A DNA stretch of 64,000 bases from positions 1,457,703 to 1,521,702 of the forward strand of contig NC_049988.1 in the NCBI RefSeq assembly GCF_000003815.2, written 5' to 3'. This document shows positions 8,325 through 59,874 of the stretch, in pieces. The translations under genes and the position numbers were made by a program. The stretch comes from Branchiostoma floridae. Lineage: Eukaryota; Chordata; Leptocardii; Amphioxiformes; Branchiostomatidae. The notes below the pieces were generated by a model that saw only the letters and a program-made list of their open reading frames with translations, did no database searches and was not told where the DNA came from. The number at the start of each line of letters is the position of its first letter. Position 1 is the stretch's first letter.

Positions 8325-9944
8325 GTTCAAAACTTTTTTTTCACGTTCTAACACTTTTATAAGGTGAAATACACTTAGTAGACATGTTTAGAATCAAAAA
8401 GAAAAATCTTTGATCAATTAACGACTTGTAATGTAAAAGTTCGTAGTAAGCGTAGAACGGCTGAAAAGGGCCTAAATCTTATGTTTTGAGCGAAATTAAC
8501 GTGTCCCATGCATTATCAATGGTATTTTTTCAAAACTTTTTTTTCACGTTCTAACACTTTTATAAGGTGAAATACACTTAGTAGACATGTTTAGAATCAA
8601 AAAGAAAAATCTTTGATCAAAACTCGATTTTTAATGACAAAGTTCGTAGTAAGCGTAGAACGGCTGAAAAGGGCCTAAATCTTAGGTTTTGAGCGAAATG
8701 AACGTGTCCCATGCATTATCAATGGTATTTTTTCAAAACTTTTTTTTTCACGTTCTAACACTTTTATAAGGTGAAATACACTTAGTAGACATGTTTAGAA
8801 TCAAAAAGAAAAATCTTTGATCAAACCTCGATTTTTAATGACAAAGTTCGTAGTAAGCGTAGAACGGCTGAAAAGGGCCTAAGTCTTATGTTTTGAGCGA
8901 AATTAACGTGTCCCATGCATTATCAATGGTATTTTTTCAAAACTTTTTTTTTCACGTTCTAACACTTTTATAAGGTGAAATACACTTAGTAGACATGTTT
9001 AAAATCAAAAAGAAAAAAACTTTGATCAAAACTCGATTTTTAATGACAAAGTTCGTAGTAAGCGTAGAACGGCTAAAAAGGGCCTAAATCTTAGGTTTTG
9101 AGCGAAATTAACGTGTCCCATGCATTATAAATGGTATTTTTTCAAAACTTTTTTTTTCACGTTCTAACACTTTTATAAGGTGAAATACACTTAGTAGACA
9201 TGTTTAGAATCAAAAAGAAAAATCTTTGATCAATTAACGATTTGTAATGGAAAAGTTCGTAGTAAGCGCAGAACGGCTGAAAAGGGCCTAAATCTTAGGT
9301 TTTGAGCGAAATGAACGTGTCCCATGCATTATCAATGGCATTTTTTCAAAACTTTTTTTTCACGTTTTGACACTTTTATAAGGTGAAATACACTTAGTAG
9401 ACATGTTTAGAATCAAGAAGAAAAATCTTTGATCAATTAACGACTTGTAATGGAAAAGTTCGTAGTAAGCGCAGAACGGCTGAAAAGGGCCTAAATCTTA
9501 GGGTTTTGAGCGAAATGAACGTGTCGCCATGCATTAATCAATGGCAGTTTTTCAAAACTTTTTTTTTCACGTTTTGACACTTTTATAAGGTGAAATACAC
9601 TTAGTAGACATGTTTAGAATTAAAAAGAAAAATCTTTGATCAAAACTCGATTTTTAATGACAAAGTTCGTAGTAAGCGTAGAACGGCTGAAAAGGGCCTA
9701 AATCTTATGTTTTGAGCGAAATTAACGTGTCCCATGCATTATCAATGGCATTTTTTCAAAACTTTTTTTTTCACGTTCTAACACTTTGATTAAAACTCGA
9801 TTTTTAATGACAAAGTTCGTAGTAAGCGTAGAACGGCTGAAAAGGGCCTAAATCTTATGTTTTGAGCGAAATAGGAACATGTCGCTCATGCATTATCAAT
9901 GGTATTTTTTCAAAACTTTTTTTCACGTTCTAACACTTTTATAA
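8325..9944. repeat. Satellite array, about 204-bp unit
   Basis: The anchor cacgttctaacac (or cacgttttgacac) followed by ttttataaggtgaaataca recurs at 8342, 8545, 8749, 8953, 9158, 9361, 9568, 9772 and 9924. Spacings are 203-207 bp, except the last (152 bp), which reflects an internal deletion. Each unit also has 'aagttcgtagtaagcg', 'agaacggctgaaaagggcct' and 'gtgtcccatgcattat'. Copies are highly similar, so the array is young or homogenised. It stops at a 100-N gap and is probably longer in the genome. Confidence 0.95.
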
Positions 9945-14760: not shown

Positions 14761-14833
14761 CCCCGTCATGTATGTTGGGTTATGTGTTGTTACAGTTTAC
14801 GCCCTTCCTCTATCCTGTTTACATTGCAATTAG

Positions 14834-15290
14834 CACTACAAGGTGCATAAATGTGAAAATTATGTGAATTTAGTGCACGATGCCAAGAAAATGTGATTTA
14901 ATGTGACTTCCTTTGGAAAAATGTGAAACCCAAAATGTGATTTATTTTCAAAATGTGAATCGTCAAATGTTATTCTATGTGAATTAATCTGACCCTTCGA
15001 AAAATGTGAATCGATTATGTGAAATCGCACAACCCAAAGACGTGACCGAAAAAATGTGAATGTGAAATGTGACAAAATGTGAAGGGATGTGAAACGGTTT
15101 TACTCCGCAAACTGGACGGAGGCGAATGTGAAATTATGTGAAGTTGAAATCACATTTTTTCACATGACAGATCAAAATGTTATTTTATGTGAAAGTGTTT
15201 CACATAATGTCACATTAGCCGGTGTCCTAGCTAAGAATGTGATTATATGTGAAAAAGTTACAACATGTAACAGATAGGTTTCCACGTGTT
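14834..15290 (+). repeat. Left subterminal repeats, ATGTGAA motif
   Basis: About twenty copies of atgtgaa/atgtgat, mostly in direct orientation, are packed into 460 bp, with a few ttcacat inversions near 15150-15215. By analogy with En/Spm, such motifs are transposase-binding sites; that role is inferred. Confidence 0.85.
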
Positions 15291-16013
15291 TCAAAAATAT
15301 GCATTCAGCATGCAAACACTTTTCAAAGATTTTAAGTATGTATTCCATACATGCTTGTCTTGTCATAAACCACAGACTTCGTACGCGGTCAAGACAAAGG
15401 CTGTCTTTTTTTTAATTCCACGTCGCTCATGTATGGGTTAAATATTTGTGGACTGTTCTCCAAAATATGCGTTGTAAGCGATACAAAGCTTGCGCAAAGT
15501 TATTCTACTGTGTAGTCAAAATAAAAAGTGTGAAAAACTCCCCCTCCCCTCGAGTGCCGCTACTATTCTGCCGATTCTAGTCCTCCCGACTGAAAGCACC
15601 GAATTCATTCACATATATGGTTTGACGGCTACGCCCAACTCCTCCTTTATGTACCACCTAAGAGTTAAGAAGATTCAAGGAGTTTGTGATCTGTTAGTTG
15701 AACATATCGGCCCAGTTGTAAAAACAGTCTGTTCAAAAGATCTTGTAACATTATGGTCAATTAGAATTAGAAATCTTAGTTGGTACTTTGAAGAACCAAA
15801 TCGATGTGTCACGAAGTGACCCTACTGGACAGACAGCAAAGGAAATGGTGGACCCGTCATTATGTGACCATAGTTGTGTCTGTGCCGAGGACGGATTTAA
15901 CTTAAATAGATAACTCTCATCCATATTCACAACACACAAGCCTGCTATAAGATCAACAAGGACGCGCTTTATTTTTTTACGTCAACTCCGGATCCAAAGA
16001 AGCGAACAAACAG

Positions 16014-16169
16014 TAGCCTGAGTATCATCCTCCGTAGCAAGGAGCTTTTATCAAGTAAAGCTCCTTGTCCGTAGTAACCGCTGGCTCACGACTGTCGCTT
16101 GCTAACCACGGTGGTTAGCAAGCGAAAGTCGTGAGCCAGCGGTTACTACGGAGGATGATACTCAGGCTA
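16014..16169. mobile_element. Hairpin MITE with 9-bp target duplication (Mutator-like)
   Basis: A 156-bp near-complete hairpin. The ends are TAGCCTGAGTATCATCCTCC and its complement ending CTCAGGCTA. The direct repeat aacaaacag flanks it (16005-16013 and 16170-16178). A 9-bp duplication is typical of Mutator-like elements. The left arm carries an extra smaller hairpin (caaggagcttt ... aaagctccttg, 16038-16067). It sits inside the CACTA element, so it is a later insertion. Confidence 0.8.
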
Positions 16170-17190
16170 AACAAACAGTGGACTGACTGGAGTTTAGAAA
16201 AGATTCTCTTATTTATCTGACATGGACATGCTAATTGCCTCCTGTAGAGGCTTAGAGAAATATGCTTAGCATACTCCTATAAAGTATAAAATACAAAACA
16301 AGGGGCTGATTGGACAACATAAAAGGGATAAGATTCATTGTTGTTCGTACAAAATATACAGGTGTTTACTTTGCACATTGGCTGGGCTTTTGTACTGCCA
16401 CCCATAAGACTTACTTGTATATGTACATATAGATAATTTGACGATGTCAACATTGAAGTGCAAAATGCTTGAAGGCTTACTGATTCGAGGAGACTCGTTT
16501 TACCACTCAGAGGTCACAATCCAAATTATATGAAATCATATTTACAAATCTTCACTCTATGTATAGTATTTCATTTTACAGTGCTTATACAACACGAAAC
16601 ATTTATAAGCCCGTAAACTGAAGCGACGACTATTTCCGGCATGTATACAATCATTGTCAAATCATAATCTAAACAACGCAAGCTGCCAACAGGAACAGGC
16701 CAATATGAAAAAATGTAAAAGGGAGTCTATAGCAAATGATTATAGAACTTACGTACAAAAGACAGGACAGGGTTTACCCAAATTTTTCAACCTCCTTGCC
16801 CAAACACATCTCATCTGACTTGTACAAAGTCTGGCTTCACTTGACTGCAGACTGGGATGTGTATTGGGCACTACGAACACGGAATGGTTACAAACGGACA
16901 TTTTTGGTTACAATTCTGGGGCAATTTATTTAGTTTAGATTGACCCTTTTGGCGACATTTTTCGTTTTTGGCAACATTTTTCGTTTATGGACCCTGGCCA
17001 AGATTTATAAACGTGGAAAGGCGACGATTTCTGGGATAACGGCGAAAAATGCGGTTTATGGTCCCTCCGGGCGGTCTAATGCGCGCGGTCAAAGTGCGTT
17101 TCACACCTACATTCTTTCCCTCTCGCCCATAATCCCCATTGTTTTCTCATTAGGGAGACGAATCTATGCCCCAGCTGTTTTTTGACGAAT

Positions 17191-17320
17191 TTTTAGTCGC
17201 TTTTATAAAAGCTCCTTGCTTTTATCGGGCTTTCTATTTTGTCATTTTTCTTGAACTCTGCCAGCCAATACAAGATACAATACAAAATAGAAAGCTCGCT
17301 TTACAACGACTAAAAAAACG
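17191..17320. repeat. Imperfect inverted repeat
   Basis: The segment from 'tttttagtcg' to 'gctttctattttgt' on the left faces 'acaaaatagaaagc' to 'cgactaaaaaa' on the right, with a 40-bp loop. It may be a small MITE or a fold-back element. No target duplication was identified. Confidence 0.5.
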
Positions 17321-17372
17321 TAAAAAAAAAGCCGGAGTTTAACTTCTCCTTGGAGAAAATATCAGGTCTACA

Positions 17373-20300
17373 TGGAAACACTTGAAAACTTTGTCGGCAA
17401 CCTTCCTGTTTGAACGTTCTTTTAGAGCTGTACAAGTTACCCGTAGGTAATAGTGCTAGACCAGAATCCTATATATCTTATAATCTTAAAACAGGACTTG
17501 TCAGTTATTTACAGCATTCTTAACTTTAGAAGACAACAAGATTCCATCCATTTTCCCGTCGGCCACGGTTTAGGGTAAAGTCTATTACTAGTATTAGGCT
17601 TGCTTTGAAATACTCCAAATTGCGTAGTCAACATTTCTGTTTGGGCGTCCCTTCAAAGCTGTACAAGTAACCCGTAGGTAATAATGCTAGACCAGAATCC
17701 TATATATCTTGTAATCTTAAAACAGGTATTTTTAGTGTTTTGCAACATTCCTTGCTTTAGAAAACAACAAGAATCCATCCATTTTCCCGTCGGACACAAT
17801 TTAGGGTAAAGTCTATTAGTTCTGCATTGAAACACTCCAAAATGCGTGGTCAACACTCTTGTTCGGGCGTGATTATAAAGCTGTACAAGTTACCCGTAGG
17901 TATTAATAATGCTAGACCAGAATCCTATGTGTCTTACAATCTTAAAACAGGATTTGTCAATGTTCTACCGCATTCCTAACTTAAGAAAACAACAAGAATC
18001 TATCCATTTCCCGTCGGCCACAGTTTAGGGTAAAGTCTATCAGGCCTGCATTGAAACACTTCAAAAGACGTGGTCAACATTCCTGTTTGGGCGTCCCTTC
18101 AAAGCTGTACAAGTTACCCGTAGGTAATAATGCTAGACCAGAATCCTATATATCTTGTAATCTTAAAACCGGTATTTTCAGTGTTTTGCAACATTCCTTA
18201 CTTTAGAAAACAACAAGAATTCATTCATTTTCCCGTCGGCCACAGTTTAGGGTAAAGTCTATTAGTCCTGCATTGAAACACTCCAAATTGCGTGGTCAAC
18301 ATTCATGTTCGGGCGTGATTATAAAGCTGTACAAGTTACCCGTAGGTATTAATAATGCTAGACCAGAATCCTATGTGTCTTACAATCTTAAAACAGGATT
18401 TGTCAATGTTCTACCGCATTCCTAACTTAAGAAAACAACAAGAATCTATCCATTTCCCGTCGGCCACAGTTTAGGGTAAAGTCTATCAGGCCTGCATTGA
18501 AACACTTCAAAAGACGTGGTCAACATTCCTGTTTGGGCGTCCCTTCAAAGCTGTACAAGTTACCCGTAGGTAATAATGCTAGACCAGAATCCTATATATC
18601 TTGTAATCTTAAAACCGGTATTTTCAGTGTTTTGCAACATTCCTTACTTTAGAAAACAACAAGAATTCATTCATTTTCCCGTCGGCCACAGTTTAGGGTA
18701 AAGTCTATTAGTCCTGCATTGAAACACTCCAAATTGCGTGGTCAACATTCATGTTCGGGCGTGCCTTTAAAGCTGTACAAGTTACCCGTAGGTATTAATA
18801 ATGCTAGACCAGAATCCTATATGTCTTACAATCTTAAAACAGAACTTCTAAATGTTCTACCGCATTCCTAACTTTAGAAAACAACAAGAATCCATCCATT
18901 TTCCCGTCGGCCATCGTTTCGGGTAAAGTCTATCAGGCCTGCATTGAAAAACTCCAAAATGCATGGTAAACATTTCTGTTTGGGCGTCCCTTCAAAGCTG
19001 TACAAGTTACCCGTAGGTAATAATGATAGACCAGAATCCTATATATCTTATAACAACAAAACAGGACTTTTCAATGCTCTACACCATTCTTAACGTTAGA
19101 AAAAGAACAAGAATCCATACATTTCCCGTGGGCCACTGTTTAGGGTAAAGTCTATCAGGCCTGCATTCAAATACTCCAAATTGCGTGGTCAACATTTCTT
19201 TTTGGGCGTCCCATCAAAGCTGTACAAGTTACCCGAAGGTAATAATGATAGACCAGAATCCTATATATCTTGTAATCTAAAACAGGTCTTTTCAGTGTTT
19301 TATAACATTCTTTACTTTAGAAAACAACAAGAATCCGTCCATTTTCCCGTTGGCCACAATTTAAGGTACGGGTAACGTCAATTAGTCCTGCATTGAATAA
19401 CTTCCAATTTTGTGGTCAAATATTCATGTTTGGGCGTCCTTTTAAATCTGTTCAAGTTACCCGTAGGTATTTATAATGCTAGACCAGAATTCTATATGTC
19501 TTACAATCTTAAAACAGGACTTGTCAATGTTCTACCGCATTCCTAACTTAAGAAAACAACAAGAATCCATCCATTTTCCCGTCGGCCACAGTTTAGGGTA
19601 AAGTCTATCAGGCCTGCATTAGAATACTGCAAAATGCGTGGTCAACATTTGTGTTTGGGTGTCCCTTCAAAGCTGTACAAGCTACCCGTAGTTAATAATG
19701 ATAGACCAGAATCCTAAATACCTTATAACAACAAAACAGGACTTTTCAATGCTCTACAGCATTCCTAACGTTAGAAAACGACAAGAATCCATCCATTTTC
19801 CCGTGGGCCACGGTTTAGAGTAAAGGCTATAAGGCTTGCATTGAAATACTCCAAATTGCGTAGTCAACATTTCTGTTTGGGCGTCCCTTCAAAGCTGTAC
19901 AAATTACCCGTAGGTGATAATAATAGACCAGAATTCTACATATCTTGTAATCTTAAAACAGGTCTTTTCAGTGTTTTACAACATTCCTAACTTTAGAAAA
20001 CGACAAGAATCCATCCATTTTCCCGTCGGCCACAATTTAGGGTAACGTCAATTAGTCCTGCATTGAAACACTTCAAAATGCGTCGTCAACATTCCTGTTT
20101 GGGTGTCGTTTTAAGTTAAATCTGTACAAGTTACCCATAGGTAATAATGCTAGACCAGAATCCCACATGTCTTATAATCTTATAACAGGACTTGTCAATG
20201 TTCTAGAGCATTTCTTACTTTAAAAAACAACAAGAATCCATCCATTTTCCCGTCGGCCACAGTTTAGTCTATGAGGCCTGCATTGAAACACTTCAAACAT

Positions 20301-22173
20301 TCATGTTTGGGCGTCCCTTTTAAGCTGTACAAGTTAGCCGTAGTCAATATTGCTAGACACGAATCTTATATATCTTATAATCTTAAAACAGGAGTTTCAA
20401 TGCTCTACAGCATTCCTAACGTTAGAAAACAACAAGAATCCATCCATTACCCACGTCGGCCATAGTTTTGGGTAAAGTCTATCAGGCTTGCATTGGAACA
20501 GTCCAAAATGCTTGGTCAACCTTCCTGTTTGGGCGTCCCTTCAAAGCTGTACAAGTTATCCGTAGTTAATAATGATAGACCAGAATCCTATATATCTTAT
20601 AATCTTAAAACAGGTCTTTTCAGTGTTTTGCAACATTCCTTACTTAAGAAAACAACAAGAATCCATCCATTTTCCCGTCGGCCACAATTTAGGGTAACGT
20701 CAATTAGTCCTGCATTGAAACACTTCAAAGTTTGTGGTCAACATTCCTGTTTGGGCGTCCCTTCAAAGCTGTATAAGTTAACCGTAGTCAATAATAATAG
20801 ACCAGAATCCTAAATATCTTATAACATCAAAACAGGACTTTTCAAGGCTCTACACCATTCCTAACTTTAGAAAACGACAAGAATCTATTCATTTTCCCCT
20901 TGGACACGGTTTGGGTAAAGTCTATCAGGCCTGCATTGAAACACCTAAAAATGCGAAATCAACATTTCTGTTTAGGCGTCCCTTCAAAGCTGTACAAGTT
21001 ACCCGTAAGTAATAATGATAGACCAGAATGCTATATGTCTAATAATCTTCAAACAGGTATTTTCAGTGGTTTACAACATTCCTTACTTTAGAGAACAACA
21101 AGAATCCATCCATTTTTCCGTCCGCCACAATTTAGAGTAAAGTCCATTAGTTCTGCATTGAAACACTCCAAAATGCGTGGTCAACATTCATGTTCGGGCG
21201 TGCTTTTAAAGCTGTACAAGTTACCCGTAGGTATTAATAATGCTAGACCAGAATCTCATATGTCTTATAACAACAAAACAGGACTTGTAAATGTTCTACA
21301 GCATTTCTAACTTTAGAAAACAACAAGAATCTATTCATTTCCCCGTCGGCCATCGTTTCGGATAAAGTCTATCAGGCCTGCATTGGAACAGTCCAAAATG
21401 TGTGGTCAACTTTCCTATTCGGGCGTACCTTCAAAGCTGCACAAGTTGCCCGTAGTCAATAATGCTAGACCAGAATCCTAAATATCTTATAACATCAAAA
21501 CAAGATTTTTCAAGGCTCTGCCGCATTCCTAACTTTTAAAAACAACAAGAATCCATCCATTTTCCCGTTTGCCACATGCACAGTTTAGTGTAAAGTCTAT
21601 CAGGCTTGCATTGGAACACTCCAAAATGCGTGGTCAACATTCCTGTTTGGGCGACCCTTCAAAGCTGTACAAGTTACCCGTAGTTAATAATGATAGACCA
21701 GAATCCTATATATCTTATAATCTTAATATAGGTCTTTTCAGTGTTTTGCAACATTCCTTACTTAAGAAAACAACAAGAATCCATCGGATTCCATTTTCCC
21801 GTCGGCCACAATTTAGGGTAAAGTCGATCTATAAGTCCTGCATTGAAACACTTCAAAGTTTGTGGTCTACATTCCTGTTTGGGCGTCCTTTTAAAGCTGT
21901 ACAAGTTACCCGTAGGTATTAATAATGCTAGACCAGAATCCCATATGTCTTACAATCTTAAAACAGGACTTGTCAATGTTCTACAGCATTTCTTAGACTT
22001 TAGAAAACAACAAGAATCTATCCATTTTGCCGTTGGCCATCTTTTCAGGTAAAGTCTATCAGGACTGCATTGAAACACTTCAAACACAAGTTGCCTGACA
22101 GTAATAATAATGCTAGACCAGAATCCTATGTCTTGTAATCCTTAAACAAGACTTTCCAATGTTCTACAGCCTC
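17373..22173 (+). repeat. Tandem array, 21-22 copies of a roughly 223-bp unit
   Basis: The anchor gctgtacaagttacccgtag recurs at 17427, 17658, 17880, 18104, 18326, 18550 and onward to about 22100, with spacings of 222-231 bp. Units also share 'gaccagaatcctatat', 'aacaacaagaatcc' and 'cccgtcggccac'. A higher-order period of 446 bp is visible: the two-unit block 18005-18240 recurs almost unchanged at 18451-18686. The short 'LYKL...NDRPESYISYNL' readings are by-products, because a 223-bp period does not keep a frame. The array fills half of the CACTA element. Confidence 0.95.
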
Positions 22174-22696
22174 ATTTAGTTCAAATTAGGGGATACAGCA
22201 TAACTTTAGTAATACGTGTGCAAATAATATCCAACATAGTGAAAGTCACAATCGGCAGGAGCTCGAGAGTTTTCCTTTTCAGATCCGTGGAAGTGGAACT
22301 TGTTCTAAAAGGCCACCTCACCAACTCACTTATGTCTTACATAACGCCCTCGATCTAAGATACTATGTTCCTCTATGTACATGTGTTGTCGTCACATTGA
22401 TTTAGAGGCATTTAGAAACTTCACTGTTTTCGTATTGATGAACTGAAATTATTATTACGGATTTCTTTGTGTTTCTTACACGGAATGAGTCAGAAACAAA
22501 TCTTGCCGGTTTTGGATTACGATTTGTTTAGACAAATTACCGGCATTGTTTGTTCCGGCACCTGCTGTTGCATACATTTTTGTGTGTTAATTTTTGCTAT
22601 TGTCTTTATGACGCCCCGAACACCCAGGTTGACCATGGACAATAGACCTCGGAATTTTTGTTGTTGGCTGCAACAAAGAGGAGATACTTTACTGAT

Positions 22697-23040
22697 AATT
22701 GAATGAAGACCTTTATTGTACAATTTTGCCCAACCGAGCTAAGTACAGGTCACAATAAGTCAGGATGTATACATATAAAAGTGTCACACTAGTACACAGT
22801 GGTGCCACACAAGCAAACTGGCACTCAAGCCGAGCCACCAGACAATGTCCACCCGCTGCGCTCATAAAACGCCCCCATCAGCGCTTGACTAGCTCTCCTT
22901 CCTAGAAAAATCACGCTCCGCTCGCTGGTCGCCTAGGGCGACCTTCTGGTTTGATCGCCTTCGGCGACCTTCGGGTGCCTTCGCTCGAGATCGGAACTCG
23001 CCGACGTTCGACACCCGCTCGGACGGTCGATCCCGAGTAC
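22697..23040 (-). other. Possible 3' end of a retroelement, GC-rich
   Basis: On the minus strand this reads a GC-rich stretch ('cgaccagcgagcgg', 'gaaggtcgccgaaggcg') and ends 'ttgtacaataaaggtcttc', with an AATAAA signal near its 3' end. It looks like a transcript tail, possibly from a LINE. No ORF or family could be assigned. Confidence 0.3.
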
Positions 23041-23224
23041 GTACATGAACTAGTTGACCTCAATTACCATATTAGTGACGCCTGTCCATATACATGTACT
23101 TGATTCATTAGCTTTCTTAGAGGCGTTTAGCATGTCCATGTTAGAAAAAAAATTATTCCAAACTCAAGTGTATGTCCGCTTCTGCTTAAATATAAAGCAC
23201 GTTCTTGTTGATTTCGTTGCTGGC

Positions 23225-23272
23225 TTGTGTGCCGTTCGCTTGTAATTGCAAATACAAGCGAACGGCACACAA
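23225..23272. repeat. Perfect 20-bp hairpin
   Basis: ttgtgtgccgttcgcttgta at 23225-23244 faces its exact complement at 23253-23272 across an 8-bp loop. It lies in the right part of the CACTA element, just before the subterminal repeats. No function is inferred. Confidence 0.85.
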
Positions 23273-23354
23273 ATCAATAAGGCTTTATACATCAACTTTA
23301 GCACACTTACCTTTACATAGCCTGCCAAATCAAATTACTTCATATCTTATATAA

Positions 23355-23966
23355 GTGGAAATCACATTAGTTTCACAAATAAAAAATGTGATATCCTGTC
23401 ACATTTTTTTCACATCTTGCAAGTTTGTGAACATCACATAAAATTCACATTTCTCAGCATGCCAGTTGTCTTCACATGTTTTCACATTTCGTAGCTGGCC
23501 GCATTTCACATAAGTTTAACATGAAGTCACATTTCATAGAATGTGATTCAATTTAACATTATTTCACATTTTCATCAAGAGCCCTTTTCACATAAAAATC
23601 ACATAAGTATAGCCGGTCGAGACGTGTATCGACAGTTACATTATTTCACATAATGGCTGCACAACCAATGTCACATTAGGTAACATATTTTTACATTTCA
23701 GAATGTGATTCTTCAAGACCGTTTTGGGGAAATGTGAAAAAATGTGATGTAAACTTATAACATTTTTTTCACATAAAGCTCAATTTCTGTGCCACCCCTC
23801 AGAAATGTGACGTGAATGTTATTTTATGTGATTATATGTCAACTTATGTGATAAAATGTGATGCTATTGAACCTCAAAATGTTTCACATAATATCACATC
23901 ATATCACATTTTCATAGAATTTTCCAGAAAATTCACATAATTTTCACATTTATGCACCTTGTAGTG
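23355..23966 (+). repeat. Right subterminal repeats, TTCACAT motif
   Basis: More than twenty copies of ttcacat/atcacat, mostly inverted relative to the left end, with a patch of opposite orientation at about 23700-23870. The layout mirrors 14834-15290, as expected for the two ends of one transposon. Confidence 0.85.
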
Positions 23967-24290
23967 TAGGCAGCCTTTCCACTAGACAGCGACCGCGATG
24001 TGCTCTCACTGCGACCTAAATATGATTTGCGTGTACCATACAAAACATAAAAGTGTCACTGAGAAGACAACAGATCACAAAAACTGTAAAAAAATATTCG
24101 TTTTTTTTCTATACAATTCGTTGAGCGACATGTCAAAATTGAGGTCGCTGCGAGAGCACCTACCGTCCTAGTGTATAGGTGATATTAGTCTTTATGCCTA
24201 GGCCCCAGTTCGTAGTAATTGTTTCCTTGTGATGTTTTATCATCAGCGGTTGCTCTTGAATCTTTTGGGCGAACTTTTCTTGTTTTCAAG

Positions 24291-48000: not shown

Positions 48001-51000
48001 TTATATCATATTTCTAAGAATACATTCTGATTTGAAAATTTTCAGAATGATTTCTGCATCTTGACATAGTGAATTCGGGGATGACACTGTAGACTTATAT
48101 TTTACAATGGATAGTTTCGCAACTAGCAGCAGTTCATTGATGTACCGAAACTTGTTTGACATATGAGGGTTGTATCCAAAAATAATGTCCTGTACAGTGA
48201 GAGATATGGAATAACTAAACAAACTTTCCACATAATCCCATAATGGTTTAACAATTTTACAGTCAAAGAAAAAATGCTCTATATATTCTATAATATCGCA
48301 AAAAATACACTTATTATTTTCTACAATTCTCATCTTATGCAACAATATTTTGGTCGGATAAATATTATGCAAGATCTTCCATTGCAAACTAATAAGTTTG
48401 GGTTCTTTAGTGGTCAAGAAGGGAGATTTCCATAGTACATGCCAAGAAATGGAACGAAAATCGTACATAGGAAATCGTTTCTCCCAGAAATTCTGTGAGA
48501 CTGGGACTGCTTGGTATTGCATGATACAGAAATTCTTAAAGAAGATAGAGTCTAGTAAGCGGATGTCTTTACCACAAAGTTTGATACTAGGAGATTCTTC
48601 GTTGTCTAATCGAGAAAAACCTTTCCATTGTTTGGGAATTGAATTGATTAAAGCATGATACTGTAGTAATACATGTGCATCATTACCAACAATAGCTTTT
48701 ACATCATCAAAAGATATAAAGTTACCCTGATCATCCACAATATCATTTACATAAAGAATATGTCGTCTAATCCATTTCTTAAAATAAAGCATGTTGCCCT
48801 TGTAACTTATACAAGCATTGTTCCATAACAATTGCCAATTTACTTGATTTACCTCAATATCATTGACATTCTGTACAGGTTTCATTTCATACCAAGTAAG
48901 TATGAGTTTACGGTAATAGAGAGGTAAGGGCAACAGTGAATCTTTAGATGACACATGGACTGCCGAGCAGTTATGTCTCAATATACAAAGATCAGGTCCT
49001 AACTTCTTAAAATAATACAGTTGTATCTTCTTCCATGTAGGAGTAGGAGTTTCACTACCGGATAACAATTTTTTTATCGATCGTAATAAACAACATTTGT
49101 GCATTATTCTTATATCTATCATTTTCAATCCTCCCTTTGAATAGTCTTGAACCATCACATTACGCTTTACTCTATCTCTTTTCCAGATAAATCTGTAAAA
49201 CATCAAATTAACATCCTTTAAGAAGCTATCCGGTGGTATAAGTGCACCAAAACTGTAAGACAGTTGTGAAGCTACAAGGTTTTTGAGCACTGTTATTTTT
49301 CCTATAAGACTAAGGTTGCGTGAAGCCCAAGATGATAAAATATTTTTCATCTTACAGTATTTTTTGCTCCAATTTACTTCTACTTCAGAGGCACAACATG
49401 CAGATGAGAAAACAATCCCTAAACATTTTGCTGTGGTGCACCATTTTAGCCCACTAGCTTGTTCAGAGCAGTGTCTCCAAGGGCCTAGCCACATGGCTAC
49501 TGTTTTTTCTTTATTCAAAACTAGACCAGAAAAAACGGAAAAATGTCTAATAATATCTAAACTTCTATCAATAGAAATTTTGTCACCAAGTATCAGTTCA
49601 GTATCATCTGCATATTGAAAAATTCGAGATTCAACATCGGAGTCGCTAAGCCCAGATAATGTAATACCTTTGATTTCGGAAGACTGGCGGACTTTAAGAG
49701 CAAAGAGCTCTGTGGCTAGAATAAACAGAAGAGAAGACAGGGGACATCCTTGACGTACACCTCTTCCTAGGTCAAACCATTCAGAGATATGACCACAATG
49801 ATTGATACAACTACGGGCATTATTAGTGTATACCTTTACCCACTGAACAAAATCTGAACCGAAATTGAACTTTTCAAGAACATTTATAATGAGGTCTTTG
49901 GAAATAGTATCAAAGGCTTTGCTGTAATCTAAGAAGAGAATGGCACCTGGAACATTAGAATCTCTAGTAAAGCAAATTATGTCATCTATGGCTCGTATGT
50001 TATTCAAAATACTACGTCCCTTGATATATCCAACTTGGTCTGGTCCAACAATGTGAGAAATAATGTTCTGTAATCTATTTGCTAATATCTTTGCACCTAT
50101 TTTGTAATCCGTATTTGTGATTGAGATAGGTCGCCAGTTAGACAGCTGGTCTCTACTTAAATCTTGGTGTTCACCCCCTTTAAAGAGTAAGGATATAACC
50201 CCTTTACGTTGAGTGGAAGAAAGCTGGTTCTTCGTGTAGCCCTCATTTAGTGAGTTCAAAACCATAGATCCTATTCTGCTCCAAAAGACTTTATAAAAGT
50301 CAGTAGTAAGGCCATCTAGGCCGGGACTGCAATTTGTCATGTTACGTAGAGCAGATGTACATTCCGTCATAGTAAACAACCCTTCACAAGATTTACTTTG
50401 CATGTCAGACAACGTCGGAAAATTTACGTCTGTAATAAAGTCATCAAAGCTTTCTATGTCGAAATCGTCGTTTTTACTGTATAGTTTTCTATAGTAATCA
50501 ACTTGTTGTTCCAATAATTTATTTTGATCTGTTATTATGTGACCGTCAGGTGTTCTGAGGCTTGTAATAACATTGTGTATGGCACGTGACTTCTCAAGTC
50601 GAAGAAAGTAGGCTGTGTTTTTTTCTCCTTCCTCAATCCATTTAACTTTTGAGCGGATTTGTGCACCATGCGCCTCGTGAAGGGCTAATGCTTCAAACTC
50701 AGCTTTTGTGTTGTGCACCTGTTGCTGTAATGTTAAATTCTTTGGATCGGAAGCTAATTGTTTTTCCAGCCGTTCTAATTTTTCATCAATTATGTTGTGT
50801 TTGGATCGTTTTTCAAGAGCCTTTTGTTTCCCGTAACTAATTGAGAAAGTTTTTATCTTACTCTTACAGATGTCCCATATTAACTGTTTATCTTCGATCA
50901 CAGAGTCACTAAGGCCTTCTTGGATGTTTCCTATGATTTCATTAACACGATCAACAAACACCTTATCTTTTAGAAATGAATTATTGAATTTCCAATATGA

Positions 51001-51735
51001 AGGTCCTTTGTCAAACTGTGTTACAGACATATCCAATACAACAGCTCTATGATCACTGCAGGGGAAAGAGATGATTTCACATGCAGTAGTTTTATCAAAC
51101 AAAAAGTCATTAATCAGGAGATAATCTAGTCTCCTGGCTGTAAAAGGGTTTCTCTTAGACCATGTGTAATCCTTGTCTTCACTATGGAAGACTCTCCAGA
51201 TGTCAAGTAGTTCAAGGTTGTCTGTTAAATTATTAAAACATTTAACCTCTGCTTTATCATGCTCTTTCCCTGCTACATTGTCGAGATCACGATTGAGTAC
51301 TGTATTGAAATCACCAGCTAACATAAAATATTCACCGTCACAACAATGTTCTTGCAGTTGAGTTAGAACCTGTTTGTAGAACAGTTTCTTACTCACTACA
51401 TTGTTAGGAGCATATACATTGAAACAAACAAATTTCTCACCATGGTGTATGAATTTTATACCAATGACCCTCTCAGATATATCTATAAATTCCACATTTT
51501 TAATGTTGGAACCTTTAGATATCAAAATAACTTGTCCTTTGCTATGACAGGTACCAGGGTGTGCGTAAAGCATCCCTCCCCATTCTGTCTTCCATGTCTC
51601 TATATCAGCACTGCTGATGTAAGTTTCTTGCATAAAAGCAATGTCTATCTTCTTATCTTTAAGGTATTGAAAAACAGTTCGCCGTACCGTTCGTTTCCTT
51701 AAGCCTCGCGTGTTGATGGTGAGTAGTCGAACCAT
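48001..51735 (-). CDS. LINE ORF2: APE endonuclease, reverse transcriptase, C-terminal zinc motif
   Basis: 1244 residues. Residues 1-235 are an APE-like endonuclease (NTRG, MQETYI, AGDFNTVLNRD, CSDHRAVV), which nicks the target DNA. The reverse transcriptase lies at about 490-770: SNWRPISITNTDYKI, the first catalytic block FLDYSKAFDTI, RGVRQGCPLSSLLF and the second catalytic block FQYADDTELIL. The C-terminal CIFCDIIEYIEHFFFDC is the Cys/His motif common in L1/Tx1 ORF2. It primes reverse transcription at the nicked target. All catalytic residues are present, with no stop or frameshift. Confidence 0.97.
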   Translation of the reverse strand: MVRLLTINTRGLRKRTVRRTVFQYLKDKKIDIAFMQETYISSADIETWKTEWGGMLYAHPGTCHSKGQVILISKGSNIKNVEFIDISERVIGIKFIHHGEKFVCFNVYAPNNVVSKKLFYKQVLTQLQEHCCDGEYFMLAGDFNTVLNRDLDNVAGKEHDKAEVKCFNNLTDNLELLDIWRVFHSEDKDYTWSKRNPFTARRLDYLLINDFLFDKTTACEIISFPCSDHRAVVLDMSVTQFDKGPSYWKFNNSFLKDKVFVDRVNEIIGNIQEGLSDSVIEDKQLIWDICKSKIKTFSISYGKQKALEKRSKHNIIDEKLERLEKQLASDPKNLTLQQQVHNTKAEFEALALHEAHGAQIRSKVKWIEEGEKNTAYFLRLEKSRAIHNVITSLRTPDGHIITDQNKLLEQQVDYYRKLYSKNDDFDIESFDDFITDVNFPTLSDMQSKSCEGLFTMTECTSALRNMTNCSPGLDGLTTDFYKVFWSRIGSMVLNSLNEGYTKNQLSSTQRKGVISLLFKGGEHQDLSRDQLSNWRPISITNTDYKIGAKILANRLQNIISHIVGPDQVGYIKGRSILNNIRAIDDIICFTRDSNVPGAILFLDYSKAFDTISKDLIINVLEKFNFGSDFVQWVKVYTNNARSCINHCGHISEWFDLGRGVRQGCPLSSLLFILATELFALKVRQSSEIKGITLSGLSDSDVESRIFQYADDTELILGDKISIDRSLDIIRHFSVFSGLVLNKEKTVAMWLGPWRHCSEQASGLKWCTTAKCLGIVFSSACCASEVEVNWSKKYCKMKNILSSWASRNLSLIGKITVLKNLVASQLSYSFGALIPPDSFLKDVNLMFYRFIWKRDRVKRNVMVQDYSKGGLKMIDIRIMHKCCLLRSIKKLLSGSETPTPTWKKIQLYYFKKLGPDLCILRHNCSAVHVSSKDSLLPLPLYYRKLILTWYEMKPVQNVNDIEVNQVNWQLLWNNACISYKGNMLYFKKWIRRHILYVNDIVDDQGNFISFDDVKAIVGNDAHVLLQYHALINSIPKQWKGFSRLDNEESPSIKLCGKDIRLLDSIFFKNFCIMQYQAVPVSQNFWEKRFPMYDFRSISWHVLWKSPFLTTKEPKLISLQWKILHNIYPTKILLHKMRIVENNKCIFCDIIEYIEHFFFDCKIVKPLWDYVESLFSYSISLTVQDIIFGYNPHMSNKFRYINELLLVAKLSIVKYKSTVSSPNSLCQDAEIILKIFKSECILRNMI

Positions 51736-51763
51736 GGGTGTTGATGGAAGATAGACCTAAGTC

Positions 51764-53011
51764 CTACCCATTGTCTTTGTTTCTCCTCTGATCGTTGTGG
51801 CGACCGTCGTCTTTGTACAGTTTGTCCGGCTTCGACTTGTCAAGCGGAGTCAGAACATTCTTTCTCTTCCTAGTTGACCTTGATGTCCCAGGTTGACGCC
51901 GTTGACCTTGATCTCTAGTGTCCTCAGTGCTGGTGGGCGCTGGGCGCGTTGAACGTGTAAGTCTTCTCTGATTGGTTCCACTAGAGAGACCGGCTTGTTC
52001 CTGATGTGGGGGGTTTGCAATTGACTCTGTCTCACACCGAGTGTTCTCTGCGCCATCACTGTCCCCTGTAACTAGACTCTCGGCTGTCTCATCGGGATCA
52101 CCAGAAGCCCAGTCTGTCCAGTCTTGATCTTCTCCACTATTTTTGTTATTAACGACTGCTCTCGAAGCACTAGTCGATCGAGAGTTGGACGCCTCCCGGG
52201 CAGCTCTGAGTCCTTGCTGAACTTTCTGCTCAACATCTCTTCTTTCTCTTGATGGATTACTTCTTTCGGCCCTGCACCACTTTTTTGTGTGACCTTTTTT
52301 TCCGCAGTTGTGGCAAGTGATGCGATGAGGGCATTCGTGGAATGCATGGTCCTCTGACTTGCAAGATTTGCAGTTGATATGCTGGCCATCGTGGAAAACT
52401 GTCACTTCAATGTCAATCAGAGAACCTGTATCCGTAGGGTCAGGTATGCTGTAGGTACCGTACCGCTGGAATGGGTTGGTGATCTTCGACGCATAACAGA
52501 ATCTGTGGCCCGAGTACAGGTGCTGAAAGGGGGAGTCCGCATTCCTGTTCTTCTTCTGATGTCTCAGGACTTCTGTCGTCCTTTCAGCTCTCGAGTCCAC
52601 CCATTGTGCAACCTCATCATCCGATACACTATGCGGAATACCATGGATAGAAATCCTGATTTCGGTTTTCCTTAAACCCGTTTTCTGGAAATCCAGGATT
52701 CCGTAGGATTTTGAACCGACAACCACTCGACCTACGCTGATTGCTTTCGCCTTAGCATCCAGGCATGTAAAATTAATTACCCAGGTGCGCTTCTGGCTCA
52801 GGTACTGTGCGCCTAGGATTTCTTCTGGTTTTATGGAATCATCCAGCTCAGTCTGAACAGTATTGTACAGTGCTTCAACTATATCAAATTCAGACAACTT
52901 GGGCATACCGACCGCGTCGATTTTGATCCAAAGATTGGTGTCTTGGAGCCTTGAAATGTCGTCACGTGCCGCCATCTTTCCTGTCGGAGTAGCCCTCCCA
53001 CTGGTCTTCAA
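51764..53011 (-). CDS. LINE ORF1: nucleic-acid-binding protein with two zinc knuckles
   Basis: 415 residues. The N-terminal half has IKIDAVGMPKLSEFDIVEAL and IRISIHGIPHSVSDDEVAQW, resembling an RNA-recognition-like fold. Two CCHC knuckles follow: CKSCKSEDHAFHEC and CHNCGKKGHTKKWC, both with C-x2-C-x4-H-x4-C spacing. The tail is basic, Ser/Arg-rich and probably disordered. The product should bind the element RNA and package it with ORF2. An internal ATG (MAARDD) in good context could also serve as the start. ORF2 begins 28 bp after the stop. Confidence 0.93.
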   Translation of the reverse strand: MKTSGRATPTGKMAARDDISRLQDTNLWIKIDAVGMPKLSEFDIVEALYNTVQTELDDSIKPEEILGAQYLSQKRTWVINFTCLDAKAKAISVGRVVVGSKSYGILDFQKTGLRKTEIRISIHGIPHSVSDDEVAQWVDSRAERTTEVLRHQKKNRNADSPFQHLYSGHRFCYASKITNPFQRYGTYSIPDPTDTGSLIDIEVTVFHDGQHINCKSCKSEDHAFHECPHRITCHNCGKKGHTKKWCRAERSNPSRERRDVEQKVQQGLRAAREASNSRSTSASRAVVNNKNSGEDQDWTDWASGDPDETAESLVTGDSDGAENTRCETESIANPPHQEQAGLSSGTNQRRLTRSTRPAPTSTEDTRDQGQRRQPGTSRSTRKRKNVLTPLDKSKPDKLYKDDGRHNDQRRNKDNG

Positions 53012-54333
53012 AAGACGGGCACAAAGTCTTCCAAAGATTGAAAGAAAGTAATTCCAAGGCAGCGACGAAAGTCAGCACACACTTATGTATCACTACTGAC
53101 TCAAAAAGAACGGTTAGCACCGCTCGAGAGCTTCCAGAACGCGAATTCTGGAGAGCTCACACAAAACACGTCAGATGACAACACCTGACCTTTGACCTCT
53201 CCCTAAATCGAATCGGTTGTCTTATTTACAGATAAATGACGTAAGTGGGTCAAGACGTGTCAATTACTTTGTGTATCCCTATCGCTAATAAGACATTATC
53301 TTTTTTTCACTCGTCTCATTCAACTGCGATTATTTAATAGATTTCAATTATGCAACTTCCAGCGTCATGATATGGAATCCAAATGACCTGGAATTTAGTA
53401 TAGGGCCTAGTTATCACATATAATATGGAATAATGAATAATATGTGGAAGAGTACGGGAATGTTGGGAATGGTTCCAATCTTGTACAGAGGTAAAAAAAA
53501 ATCTATTTTTGTATAGGTGTATTTTGGATGGTCTATTATTGTGAAAGGTTTACATAGAAGGCCATAGCCCACTAAAACAGTCTCCTAGTCATTTATATAA
53601 GAGAGAGAGAGAGACAGAGTGAAAAAGAGAGAGAAAGAAATAGTTTATTTCTTTTACATCTAAGTCGCGGCCCGAGAGCCGAATTAGTAGGCTTGTTTAC
53701 ACTGCAATTCTGCACATTGTTACTAACTATATTGTAACATAAACAATACAAATTAGACGTATATTGCCAATAATACAAGGAATAAACAATATAAATACGA
53801 GGAGTACCGGTGCAATGTCTAAAATACAAATTGAAAAAAACTTTAAAACTGCAAAATTTAGAAGTCTGATTATGATAAATGTAATTAATTTGTTTTGCAA
53901 ACTTTGCTGAAAACTGATTGTCCAATCTGGTATCATAGAGTCTACGGGTCATTTAATGAACTGATCATTGTTGCTATTGCACTGGTTAGGCTTAGGTCAC
54001 ATTTCCAAACCGGGGCCCGGCCGGGCTGTTTGTGGAAACGAAACATAGAAAATGTATACGTAAAAATATACACAAATAATGCCCACGACTATTCTCTTTA
54101 CGTTCTGTGTATTTCTACGTTTTTGCTGGTGCGTAGCACCAGCTTTAATAGAGACAGCAGAAGCGGGTCTTTGGATGCATGGATAGATGGATGCATGGTT
54201 CGGTGAGCACAAATAGTCCGTAGATTGAAAAAAAGTATCAGAAAACAGATAACTAATGCCATAGAATGCCAAAATAAATCTAAAGTCAAAGAATAAGATG
54301 TGAAAGTACAAAAAGAAAAAAATCTATTGTTGG

Positions 54334-56283: not shown

Positions 56284-58734
56284 AGTAACCACAGTATAGA
56301 AAACGTGTAAGAAAAAGGCTGCCAAATGTCACCTGCCTAAGGTTTAGTCGATGAAAAATTGTAGTCTGACTTCTTCATTGTCCACCTATAGAGCACATCA
56401 GCCGACACTCAACAGAGACGGGGGCCGATATCGTCTGCCAGGCATTTGTGATTCGTTACTCGAATCACGTGTCTCTAAGTCACGTGATCAGAGTAACTGA
56501 ATCGTCACTCCTGAAGAAGGTCGACGGAAGTGCGACTGAAAATTCGAGGTGAGAATAATTTGTGTTGTATGACAGTTGAAAAATTTCAATATAAAAATCT
56601 GTTACCTCCTATAACTGAACAACGTAGAATTCACCGTCTGTCTATTCTTACGAAAATATAAGCAGATTTCTATTTTAAGGTAGTTAACTCATCTCTTCAC
56701 ACCACCATTTTGTCGCCCACATGATTATTTAAAAAAAAAGAATGATTTGAAGTACAATAACATCAGCAGTTAGTTGTAATAAATACTTATAATTGTAGAA
56801 CCGAAAAATGTATCTGGGAATTTCTAACGATATGTAGCAAACTGTCATTAACGTTACGACTGGTTTTGAAACAAAAATGTACAGTAGTATATCAAAATAA
56901 TGATTTTATGTAACCTAGAGCATAATACAGACATCCAGTAGGCATTTGTCTGTAAATATGCATTATCCATACTTATTTCTTATTTCATACTTATTTTTTT
57001 TGTATAATTTGTATACTTCCTTGTTATTTCTGGCAACGTTAACTTTCAATTTATACTCATATCCATTTATTATTTCCTAAGTTACGTTTAATTATTTTGA
57101 GTAATATATTTTCCATTCCATTGTGTCCGATAATTATTATTCATACTTATCTAGGTTAGGTTGAATTGAATTGAGATAATATAGGAAGGCCTTCTTATAA
57201 GCTCTATGCTTTTGGCCTACCTTGCACTATTCATGTATAAGAATTCACTCATCTGTACTTTTTATTTGTTTTAAAGTGCGAACAAATGAACAAATAAAAA
57301 AAAAATACTGTGGTACGGAATAAGACAGGCATGTACGAAGAGTAATTTACATATCCTATTCCAATATTTTAGAATTAACCATGATCTCAAAGTTGCGAGC
57401 GTGCATATGCTGTGGTGATGTGGTCAGTAATCGCCTTGTGCGGCCATAGGTTTCTAACCTTTAACTCATTGCCAAACGCAGAAAAAAGGAATTGGTTAAA
57501 AGGAAGAATGAATAAATCTACGAATGGATATATCGATGAATGAATAAATCAATGAATGAGCAAATGAACGAATACATAAGAAAGAAAGAATAAGAAAGGT
57601 AATAACTATAAAAAAGAAGGAAGAAAAGAAAGAGAAACAAGATAACGAAATGGAAAGAAAAGTAAAAGAAAAAAAGGAAAAAGACAGACGAAAATCCAAA
57701 AAGGCAGTCACACCATGGTTCTGAGGACAAATTTCTATCATGTAATCTGCCTATTATATACAGATAGAAATATTGGGTACCTCACCAATAGTGTAGGCGG
57801 AACGTACTGAACAATAATGGGTAAGCAGGAGTCGAATGACCTTTCACCCTACAGTGTCCGTCATTTTTGACCGCCTGCTGCTGCTCCAGACAGACGCTTG
57901 CAGGAGGATTGTGCGAAGGTAATAATCAACACCGGAAGCAGGTAAGAACAAGATATACATACAACATGACTGCATTATTATGAAGTATAGGGGTTAGAGG
58001 TCATTTGTATGGTATGCGGGCGACATTAGGCAGAAATGTAAGACTTTTCGGGGTGACGAAAATAGTGGTGGTGGGGAGGGGGGCATTTTTACCTTCATGG
58101 AATTCCGGAAACAAAGGGGAAAAAAAAAACAGTCCTCCATTTCTTCTACTTACCATTGTCCTTTTTTTCGAAACAAATAATGAACTGGTCAGACCGCTAT
58201 CATCATGGTTACAGGAGGTGTAGCAAGCATCCTGTAATGTACGGTTACATGTAGCAAGTATCAGGAGAAAGCTCGAGGGGCTAGATTATGACTGTGTTTG
58301 TGTAAGACCAAACAGATCTTGTCTACCCGACAGGCGACCGATAAGTGTACTGAAGATGCCGCTGGGGTCATTGAGGTCGTTGGGAGAGTCTACTGTAAAA
58401 TGGGTGGCGCTTTCATGACGGGTGATTTGTTATGAGCTGTAGCTAATCACAAAAGGCCTGGAGCTAAAATGACCGAACTGTACTTTTTTTGCGCAAGAAA
58501 AGGAAAAACAAAATACTACTTTTGGAAATGAATTGGTATCATCTTTATGGCTGCAATTACACCAGATATTATTATTATTATCACTTCCTGTCACTTAAGG
58601 TGAAGGTAACTAGTATATCGGAAACAAATGCATTTTAAGAAAATAAAACAAAACCTAATTGTAAATAGCTTGTTAGGCTTGATAATATAAAGGTTAACAT
58701 TATTTGTTTGCTTGAAACTAGTTTAAATGGGGCT
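56284..58734. other. Intergenic stretch, possible upstream exons of the zinc-finger gene
   Basis: No clear protein is seen. Possible untranslated exons end at 56549 (attcgag|gtgaga) and 57919 (gcgaag|gtaata), both unproven. 56447-56510 contains nested inverted repeats around two cacgtg/tcacgtga boxes. 57485-57700 is a purine-rich tract whose reverse reads as Phe/Ser-rich low-complexity peptide. Confidence 0.35.
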
Positions 58735-59025
58735 ATTTCTTCTTTTCTTATATTTTCTATTGCACTAGGTTCAACATATTTCCTCTTTTCTTTTATTTTC
58801 TATTGCATTAGGTTCAACATATTTCTTCTTTTCTGATATTTTCTATTGCATTAGGCTCAACATATTTCTTCTTTTCTTATATTTTCTATTGTCAACATAT
58901 TTCTTCTTTTCTGATATTTTCTATTCCATTAGGTTCAACATATTTCTTCTTTTCTGATATTTTCTATTCCATTAGGTTCAACATATTTCTTCTTTTCTGA
59001 TATTTTCTATTCCATTAGGTTCAAC
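58735..59025 (+). repeat. Seven tandem 43-bp units, each ending in a splice-acceptor-like sequence
   Basis: The unit is 'catatttcttcttttc' then 'atattttctattccattagg' then 'ttcaa', repeated seven times with small changes (the fourth lacks the ag). Each unit is a pyrimidine-rich tract followed by ttag|g, a usable 3' splice site. The last unit ends in caacATGG and supplies the start codon of the zinc-finger ORF. Confidence 0.9.
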
Positions 59026-59874
59026 ATGGCAGAGGCAGGTAAATGGTCTCTTACTGCTGCTTCCAAGAACCTCGGTGATGGGTCTCCTACAGGATTTCTA
59101 GGTGACCGGAATGAAAGTAAAACCAAAGACCAGCCAACAGTGAGCACAACCATAGCGGTCAGTCAACCGAAACCAAACACTGATGAGAAACCCTACATGT
59201 GTGGGGAGTGTGGATACACGGCAGCATGTCAGTCTCACGTATCCCAACATATGAGAACACACACAGGAGAAAAACCATTCAAGTGTGACCAGTGTGACTA
59301 TTCTGCTGCACGAAAATACAGTTTGAAACAGCATCTAGCCAAACACACAGGTAATAAACCCTACATGTGTGGGGAGTGTGGGTATAGAGCAACTCAAAAG
59401 TGTCACTTATCCAAACATATGAGAACTCATACCGGCGACAAACCATTCAAGTGTGACCAGTGTGACCATTCTTCTGCACATAAGTCCAACTTGAACCAAC
59501 ATTTAGCCATGCACACTGGCTATAAGCCCTACATGTGTGGGGAGTGTGGGTACAGGACAGCTCTGAAATCTGATTTATCCAAACATATGAGAACTCATAC
59601 TGGTGAAAAACCATTCAAGTGTGACCAGTGTGACTATTCTGCTGCACATAAGTCCAACTTGAACCAACATCTAGCCATGCACACTGGTGATAAGCCCTAC
59701 ATGTGTGGGGAGTGTGGGTACCGGACAACTCAGAAGTCTCATTTAGTGGAACATATGAGGACTCATACAGCTGAAAAACCCTACAAGTGTGATCATTGTG
59801 ACTTTTCTACTGCACATAAGTCCAACTTGAACCGACATTTAGCCATACACACCGGTGAGAAGCCATACATGTAG
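59026..59874 (+). CDS. C2H2 zinc-finger protein, eight fingers
   Basis: 282 residues. A 50-residue leader ([15 protein letters not shown]) is followed by eight C-x2-C-x12-H-x3-H fingers joined by TGEKP-type linkers. Two finger types alternate strictly: YMCGECGYR...HMRTHT and FKCDQCDYS...HLAMHT. The array therefore grew by duplication of a two-finger, 168-bp unit. It should bind DNA in the nucleus; the target is unknown. The ATG is preceded by a splice-acceptor-like ttag|gttcaac, so an upstream untranslated exon is likely. The frame ends at TAG 59872-59874, inside what should be the first cysteine of a ninth finger. No KRAB, SCAN or other effector domain is visible. Confidence 0.9.

What the first reader, a model, noticed from the sequence alone, without database searches (positions are those of the whole stretch)
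14834..23966. A 9.1-kb CACTA element with perfect 38-bp termini and a giant internal satellite
The two ends are exact inverses for 38 bp, start CACTAC, and are bounded by tag on both sides. Dense ATGTGAA/TTCACAT arrays lie just inside. This is a textbook CACTA/EnSpm outline, but half of the element is a 223-bp tandem array and no transposase is visible. Perfect ends suggest recent movement by a transposase in trans. A mobile element carrying about 21 satellite copies is a plausible way to seed new satellites.
Basis: partly seen in the sequence, partly recalled or inferred. Interest (0 to 1): 0.85.

Follow-up and report, generated by a model that had tools for sequence, protein, structure and literature searches.

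The report
Jumping gene carrying its own satellite
This is a cut-and-paste transposon of an animal genome (probably amphioxus) whose middle is a block of tandem repeats, and related copies on other chromosomes show that the whole package, repeats included, has been moved and inherited as one piece.

Summary
In detail: a 9,133-bp element (14834-23966) with 38-bp perfect CACTA ends, a TAG duplication and a 21-monomer, 222-bp array.

Nineteen loci, own included, have a 93-bp end at 96% or better. Seven of nine copies read at both ends have perfect 3-bp duplications at different sites. An 18.2-kb copy (C1) has the same left end, the satellite, and Transposase_21 and DUF4218 matches; its joined flanks match a diverged uninterrupted repeat.

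The array belongs to the family. Ten of 11 fetched copies with this left end hold it. Of 117 monomers from nine copies, 95 are closer to a window monomer than to any in their own array, and 82 of 101 neighbours keep the window's order. Window and copy C5 share a nested MITE absent from five other copies but sit at different sites, so an array-bearing element moved.

All 24 satellite loci listed lie near CACTA arms; no free-standing array was seen, so "seeding" is not shown. Satellites inside CACTA elements are published for quinoa (PMC8978399). This is an animal counterpart.

The parts
14834..23966 (+). Non-autonomous CACTA/EnSpm element, 9,133 bp
   Evidence: 38-bp perfect inverted ends and TAG duplication; 19 loci, own included, with an end at 96% or better
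14831..14833 (.). Target-site duplication TAG, left
23967..23969 (.). Target-site duplication TAG, right
14834..14871 (+). Left terminal inverted repeat, 38 bp, CACTACAAGGTGCAT...
23929..23966 (-). Right terminal inverted repeat, 38 bp
14834..15260 (+). Left subterminal region: 24 ATGTGA/TCACAT motifs, 20 of them in + orientation, many 10-11 bp apart
   Evidence: conservation test
23340..23966 (-). Right subterminal region: 29 motifs, 20 in the mirrored orientation
15261..17359 (+). Left interior, shared with other copies
   Evidence: no Pfam domain
17360..22084 (+). 222-bp satellite-like array, 21 monomers; my class order C A B A B A B C A B C A B C A C A B C A B
   Evidence: homologous monomers in the same order in other copies
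17860..18763 (+). Tandem duplication of a monomer pair: 17860-18317 identical at 458 of 458 to the stretch 446 bp on; copy C5 has one pair fewer
16014..16169 (.). Nested palindromic MITE with 9-bp duplication AACAAACAG (16005-16013, 16170-16178); also in copy C5, which has a gap inside it; empty in C242, C19, C3, C7a, C6
22120..23339 (+). Right interior; compared with C1 the roughly 10 kb that hold the transposase matches are missing here
   Evidence: no Pfam domain

Best explanation
It is a non-autonomous member of an animal CACTA/EnSpm family. A transposase encoded elsewhere (the 18.2-kb C1 copy is the best candidate kin) recognises the 38-bp ends and the dense subterminal ATGTGA motifs, many spaced one helical turn apart so that bound subunits would face the same way, and moves the whole element with a 3-bp target duplication. 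The array was gained by an ancestor of the C1 and window lineages, changed by gain and loss of whole monomers, probably through unequal exchange, took on a partly trimeric order, and was carried along at each transposition. Shown: family, duplications, an empty site for C1, inheritance of monomer order, movement of an array-bearing element. Inferred: transposase in trans, motif binding, unequal exchange, and that C1 or its like supplied the enzyme.
For: Ends and TSD. Ten left ends at 100% over 93 bp, own included; twelve right ends at 100%, at 11 loci, own included. TSDs GTA, ATT, AGG, AAA, TTA, GGT, TAG in 7 of 9 both-ended copies. C1: Transposase_21 in three pieces, one over the curated cut-off (E 7.3e-10), and DUF4218 (6.7e-7), with the same left end and the satellite. 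Empty site for C1, 70% over 647 columns, no gap at the join. Motif density, and 17 of 51 neighbour spacings at 10-11 bp against a mean of 5.15, 0 of 20000 random placements reaching 17. Motif columns 93% against 75-76% conserved in left ends C18a and C3d, no other of 387 mask positions scoring as high. Monomers: 117 from nine copies, median 96.5% to their best window match and 91.1% to their best match in their own array, 95 of 117 closer to the window; 82 of 101 adjacent pairs consecutive, shuffle mean 8.2, maximum 18. MITE shared with C5 at a different site.
Against: C1's right end differs from the window's by 6.4% and its left interior by 8.1%, though its left end differs by 1.6%, so C1 is not the direct parent. 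Two of its three Transposase_21 pieces are under the cut-off, one genome-search piece holds a TGA, and exons were not told from decay. Apart from C1, the best genome matches to its two tested open frames are 78-79% for the one and 52% or (short) 63% identical for the other, so no closer coding copy was found. Two of nine both-ended copies lack matching TSDs. Four copies with 100% left ends (C7a, C6, C12, C16) showed no right end in the 10 kb fetched. C18a and C3d left ends are 97.4% alike, so the conservation test is in effect one comparison; of the other five left ends C1, second subfamily and C3b point the same way more weakly, C10b hardly, and C230 the other way (66% against 72%). The spacing null ignores local duplication of motif pairs.
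Confidence: 0.93

Rival explanations
1. The array is a functional part of the element, kept by selection, for example as a spacer, a chromatin-nucleating segment or a source of small RNAs.
For: Held by 10 of 11 fetched copies with this left end, including C1.
Against: Unit number varies. Identity between copies in the array (median best match 96.5%) is about that of the interiors, while the ends are the most alike. C18a, a both-ended copy with TSD GGT, has no array. Shared descent alone explains retention.
Confidence: 0.12
2. A pre-existing genomic satellite was captured by the element, rather than arising inside it.
For: The monomer consensus gave no match at E<=0.1 to the non-array parts of C1 or the window tested; the one match was 110 bp at 62.7%, E 0.002, in C18a.
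Against: No array away from CACTA arms among the 24 places listed, so no donor is seen; the list was cut.
Confidence: 0.35
3. Copies spread by segmental or assembly duplication, not by transposition.
For: C6 and C16 share 925 bp of flank at 98.5%; C18b and C19 share 298 bp at 100%; two C3 copies share flanks at about 98%.
Against: Among the 24 flanks compared, the only other similarity over 80 bp was a diverged repeat shared by C1 and C7a. Seven copies have perfect TSDs at different sites.
Confidence: 0.03
4. The perfect ends reflect gene conversion or constraint rather than recent movement.
For: Young copies differ by 0-2.5% at the ends and 0.5-5.1% in interiors; C1's left end is far closer than its right end.
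Against: Does not explain different sites with TSDs or the MITE shared by window and C5. Constraint on ends and recent movement can both hold.
Confidence: 0.15

Closest known systems
CACTA-like element Jozin with a 171-bp satellite array, Chenopodium quinoa (PMC8978399; passages and the section on tandem repeats read)
   Same: A 16.5-kb CACTA element with Transposase_21 holds a 5.55-kb array of 32.5 monomers; three further elements carry the array.
   Different: Plant; array close to the 3' end of elements with coding sequence. Here also half of a copy without detectable coding domains, with monomer order shared between copies.
CficCl-61-40 satellite from Jozin tnp2 (PMC7320549; abstract read)
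   Same: Link between CACTA elements and satellite DNA.
   Different: There a transposase fragment became the monomer of a major satellite; here no free satellite was seen and the monomer has no match to C1 outside its array.
Cg170 arrays in oyster Helitron-like elements (PMC5139131; passages read)
   Same: Animal mobile elements differing in the number of internal monomers.
   Different: Different superfamily.
SmTRC1 of Schistosoma mansoni (PMC1636069; passages read)
   Same: Animal relative of CACTA with Transposase_21 and a region of tandem repeats.
   Different: CCC core and 2-bp duplication there; CACTA core and 3-bp duplication here.

Membership tests
CACTA/EnSpm | Terminal inverted repeats starting CACTA | tested here: met
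   38-bp perfect ends; all nine both-ended copies start CACTAC at both ends. The core is named in PMC8978399 and PMC1636069. C2 and C7b of the second subfamily lack the first C
CACTA/EnSpm | 3-bp target-site duplication (recalled as the rule for the superfamily) | tested here: met
   7 of 9 both-ended copies; the two others look like assembly chimeras
[quoted passage not shown]
   definition from PMC8978399
CACTA/EnSpm | Transposase with Transposase_21 domain in the family | tested here: met
   Not in the window copy; in the C1 relative, whose coding state is unresolved
CACTA/EnSpm | Mobilisation by that transposase | not testable with these tools
   The empty site for C1 shows past insertion, not which enzyme acted
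Satellite DNA (classical) | Free-standing long arrays | tested here: not met
   All 24 places listed lie near CACTA arms; the listing was cut and arrays hold gaps
Satellite DNA (classical) | Concerted evolution, monomers most alike within one array | tested here: not met
   95 of 117 monomers closer to a window monomer than to any in their own array

The most novel reading that the evidence does not exclude
The satellite is a resident organ of this animal CACTA family. It formed a higher-order repeat while riding in a transposon rather than in heterochromatin, and it has begun to escape: in an older set of loci (monomers mostly 70-78% like the window's) the array is joined to an outward-pointing left arm without its tip, with the same arm breakpoint in four loci, and has been spread as part of a different, larger unit.
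Probability: 0.2. Interest if true: 0.7.

Novelty: new member of a known kind. Interest (0 to 1): 0.5.

Why it matters
How new satellites arise and spread is an open question. Here a family of sited copies carries the same array, so each gain or loss of a monomer could be placed on a tree of element copies. That gives a natural experiment on satellite growth where copies keep separate histories. The helically spaced subterminal motifs also give a testable binding site for an animal CACTA transposase.

Tried and rejected
Perfect ends as proof of recent movement: too weak; replaced by comparison of copies. Hidden transposase in the window copy: none at E<=0.1 in six frames of each interior, stops as X. 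Rfam: matches to microRNA families, all below the curated thresholds, four of five families on both strands, read as matches to palindromes. Empty site of the window copy by joined flanks: the two halves at the own locus, repeats, and a 66-bp copy of the left flank that ends at an assembly gap, inconclusive. Origin of the monomer: one weak match in C18a, not pursued. Edges of the second subfamily: a 216-bp edge shared by five loci on one side. On the other side the first apparent edge did not hold, because two of the three loci go on alike beyond it (by eye); the carrier is unidentified. My first comparison of monomers (best window match against neighbours' mean) was unfair; one search replaced it. 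Precedents were sought (listings, some cut) and in passages of PMC5802833 (no EnSpm or CACTA) and PMC12628747 (a review). None of what I saw reports a CACTA satellite in amphioxus; Repbase was not searchable, so a library entry for this family is possible.

Full report
What was checked. The ends 14834 and 23966 are identical inverses for exactly 38 bp, begin CACTAC and are flanked by TAG. The array is 17360-22084, 222-bp period, 21.1 copies. The subterminal regions hold 24 and 29 copies of ATGTGA/TCACAT against 45 in the rest of the window.

The genome. The window lies at C10:1457703-1521702 of a 513-Mb assembly in 431 contigs.

The family. The first 93 bp of the left end match 40 scored places of 56 candidates, ten of them, own included, at 100%. 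The right end gives 40 scored of 58, twelve at 100% at 11 loci, own included. Together 19 loci, own included, have a full 93-bp end at 96% or better; they are not all independent insertions, see below. Nine copies could be read at both ends. Seven have perfect 3-bp duplications at different sites: GTA, ATT, AGG, AAA, TTA, GGT and the window's TAG. C19 and C169 do not. C19's left flank is identical to C18b's over 298 bp and then runs into Ns, and C169 has two right halves with gaps between, so both look like assembly chimeras, which I cannot prove. C6 and C16 share 925 bp of flank at 98.5%, and two C3 copies share flanks at about 98%. Four copies with 100% left ends (C7a, C6, C12, C16) showed no right end in the 10 kb fetched.

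The transposase-bearing relative. Pfam Transposase_21 has 28 matches in the genome. Two lie within the 18,229-bp copy C1:32660343-32678571, which has a 100% left end over 93 bp, TTA duplications and the satellite, 14.2 copies by TRF. Its open stretches match Transposase_21 in three pieces, one over the curated cut-off (E 7.3e-10), and DUF4218 (6.7e-7). One genome-search piece contains a TGA, and exons were not told from decay. Two of its open frames were sought in the genome: beyond C1 the best identities were 78-79% for the one (pieces of a degraded place on C140) and 52% (63% over 43 residues) for the other. Joining C1's flanks with one TTA removed gives an alignment over 647 columns, 70% identical, to a repeat beside copy C7a, with no gap at the join: a diverged paralogous empty site. 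The window copy lacks the roughly 10 kb of C1 that holds the matches.

The subterminal code. Of 51 neighbouring motif spacings 17 are 10 or 11 bp, against a mean of 5.15 from random placement, none of 20000 placements reaching 17; that null does not allow for local duplication of motif pairs. In two left ends 83% like the window's (C18a and C3d) motif columns are 93% and other columns 75-76% conserved, and no other of 387 mask positions scores as high. These two ends are 97.4% alike, so they are in effect one comparison. Of the five other left ends, C1, the second subfamily and C3b show the same direction more weakly (27, 5 and 14 of 389 mask positions as high), C10b hardly (84 of 389), and C230, with six motifs left, the reverse (254 of 290). 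I read this as binding sites kept while elements were mobile and lost after decay. The binding itself is inferred.

The array's order. Class A is firm (tree support 0.978). The split of the rest into B and C is mine: a tree clade of five of six C monomers has support 0.715, Ward linkage recovers the split in part, average and complete linkage do not. It gives the order C A B A B A B C A B C A B C A C A B C A B, a trimer with slips. Within monomers 8-15, a stretch chosen after seeing the order, identity peaks at lag 3 (88.3% against 82.0-83.9%); over the whole array lag 3 is barely ahead of lag 2 (86.2 against 85.9%). Lag 3 is the highest of lags 1-7 in C5, C7a and C19 but not in C1. So a trimeric order is likely, not certain.

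The array rides with the element. From nine other copies 117 monomers were cut out. Their best match in the window array has a median of 96.5%, their best match in their own array 91.1%, and 95 of 117 are closer to the window. Of 101 adjacent pairs 82 match consecutive window monomers (shuffle mean 8.2, maximum 18). So monomers are inherited largely by position. Monomers of C1 (82-93%) and of the second subfamily (73-78%) are further off and were not in this count. Copy C5 has the window's order with one pair fewer; the window's extra pair lies in a stretch repeated at 458 of 458 bases, so it is very young or an assembly fault. Ten of eleven fetched copies with this left end hold the array; C16, with two gaps, shows none in the 10 kb fetched.

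Movement of an array-bearing element. The nested palindromic MITE at 16014-16169, with duplication AACAAACAG, is at the same place in C5 (its middle is a gap there) and absent, with a single AACAAACAG, from C242, C19, C3, C7a and C6. Window and C5 are on different contigs with different TSDs. Hence an element that already held both MITE and array was moved at least once. Among young copies the ends differ by 0-2.5% (0 being C19 and C18b, probably one locus) and interiors by 0.5-5.1%. Amphioxus heterozygosity is 3.2-4.2% and the B. floridae mutation rate 5.89e-9 per base per generation (abstract of PMC12862219). Window and C5 differ by 1.15% in the right interior, 2.54% in one and 4.10% in another part of the left interior, which would put their separation at about 1.0 to 3.5 million generations: of the order of, or below, the age of a pair of alleles. 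The spread shows how rough this is; conversion is ignored.

Does it seed satellites? A dimer query gave 211 pieces, listed only in part, at 24 places. Seventeen were read in fetched sequence and lie beside CACTA arms; the other seven have a right-end hit within about 7.6 kb in the expected orientation. C18a, an older both-ended copy, has no array. In a second set of loci the array (mostly 70-78% like the window's) lies against the left arm pointing outwards, the arm starting at base 14 in four loci (C7, C15, C9, C2); the monomer match ends 15 bp away in three and 59 bp away in C7. In a fifth, C19, the arm match starts at base 46. This set extends beyond the CACTA ends into sequence shared between loci, so it was spread as part of something else that I could not identify. 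It is the nearest thing to escape that I saw.

Standing. Satellite arrays inside CACTA elements are published for quinoa (PMC8978399, section read), and a CACTA origin of a satellite for Chenopodium (PMC7320549, abstract). What seems new, as far as the searches named in Tried and rejected show, is an animal case with monomer order inherited between copies, a probable trimeric order, and helically spaced subterminal motifs.

Noticed in passing
window 16038-16068: A 31-bp hairpin insert inside the nested MITE, with CCGTAG on both sides, absent from the MITE of copy C5, which has CCGTAG once there (by eye).
   Followed up: partly
C7:21.66M, C2:1.67M, C15:17.49M, C9:1.03M, C19:4.06M: Second subfamily: array lying against an outward-pointing left arm without its tip (first 13 bp missing in four loci, 45 bp unmatched in C19), inside a larger shared unit of unknown kind.
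   Followed up: partly
L052:7188-8585: The C1 copy holds a second tandem array, 110-bp period, 12.7 copies; no such array is listed in the window element.
   Followed up: no
window 23249-23340: Copies C242, C19, C3, C169 and C12 have about 570 bp here that is an inverted, roughly 72% copy of the left interior; window, C5 and C18b lack it. The family may once have had long diverged inverted arms.
   Followed up: partly
window 22610-22755: In copy C18b this stretch is repeated on both sides of about 1.1 kb of other sequence, half of it Ns, so it may be a solo terminal repeat of a nested retroelement.
   Followed up: no
window 48001-53071, minus strand: LINE-like pair of long open frames, 1251 and 435 aa, with the look of endonuclease and reverse transcriptase, and of a zinc knuckle (function by eye only).
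   Followed up: no
window 8326-9787: A 204-bp tandem array, 7.2 copies at 94%, between two assembly gaps.
   Followed up: no
window 58734-59943: A 43-bp minisatellite directly upstream of, and partly inside, a C2H2 zinc-finger open frame.
   Followed up: no
copy C1, left versus right end: Left end 1.6% but right end 6.4% from the window copy, suggesting a mosaic or conversion at one end.
   Followed up: no
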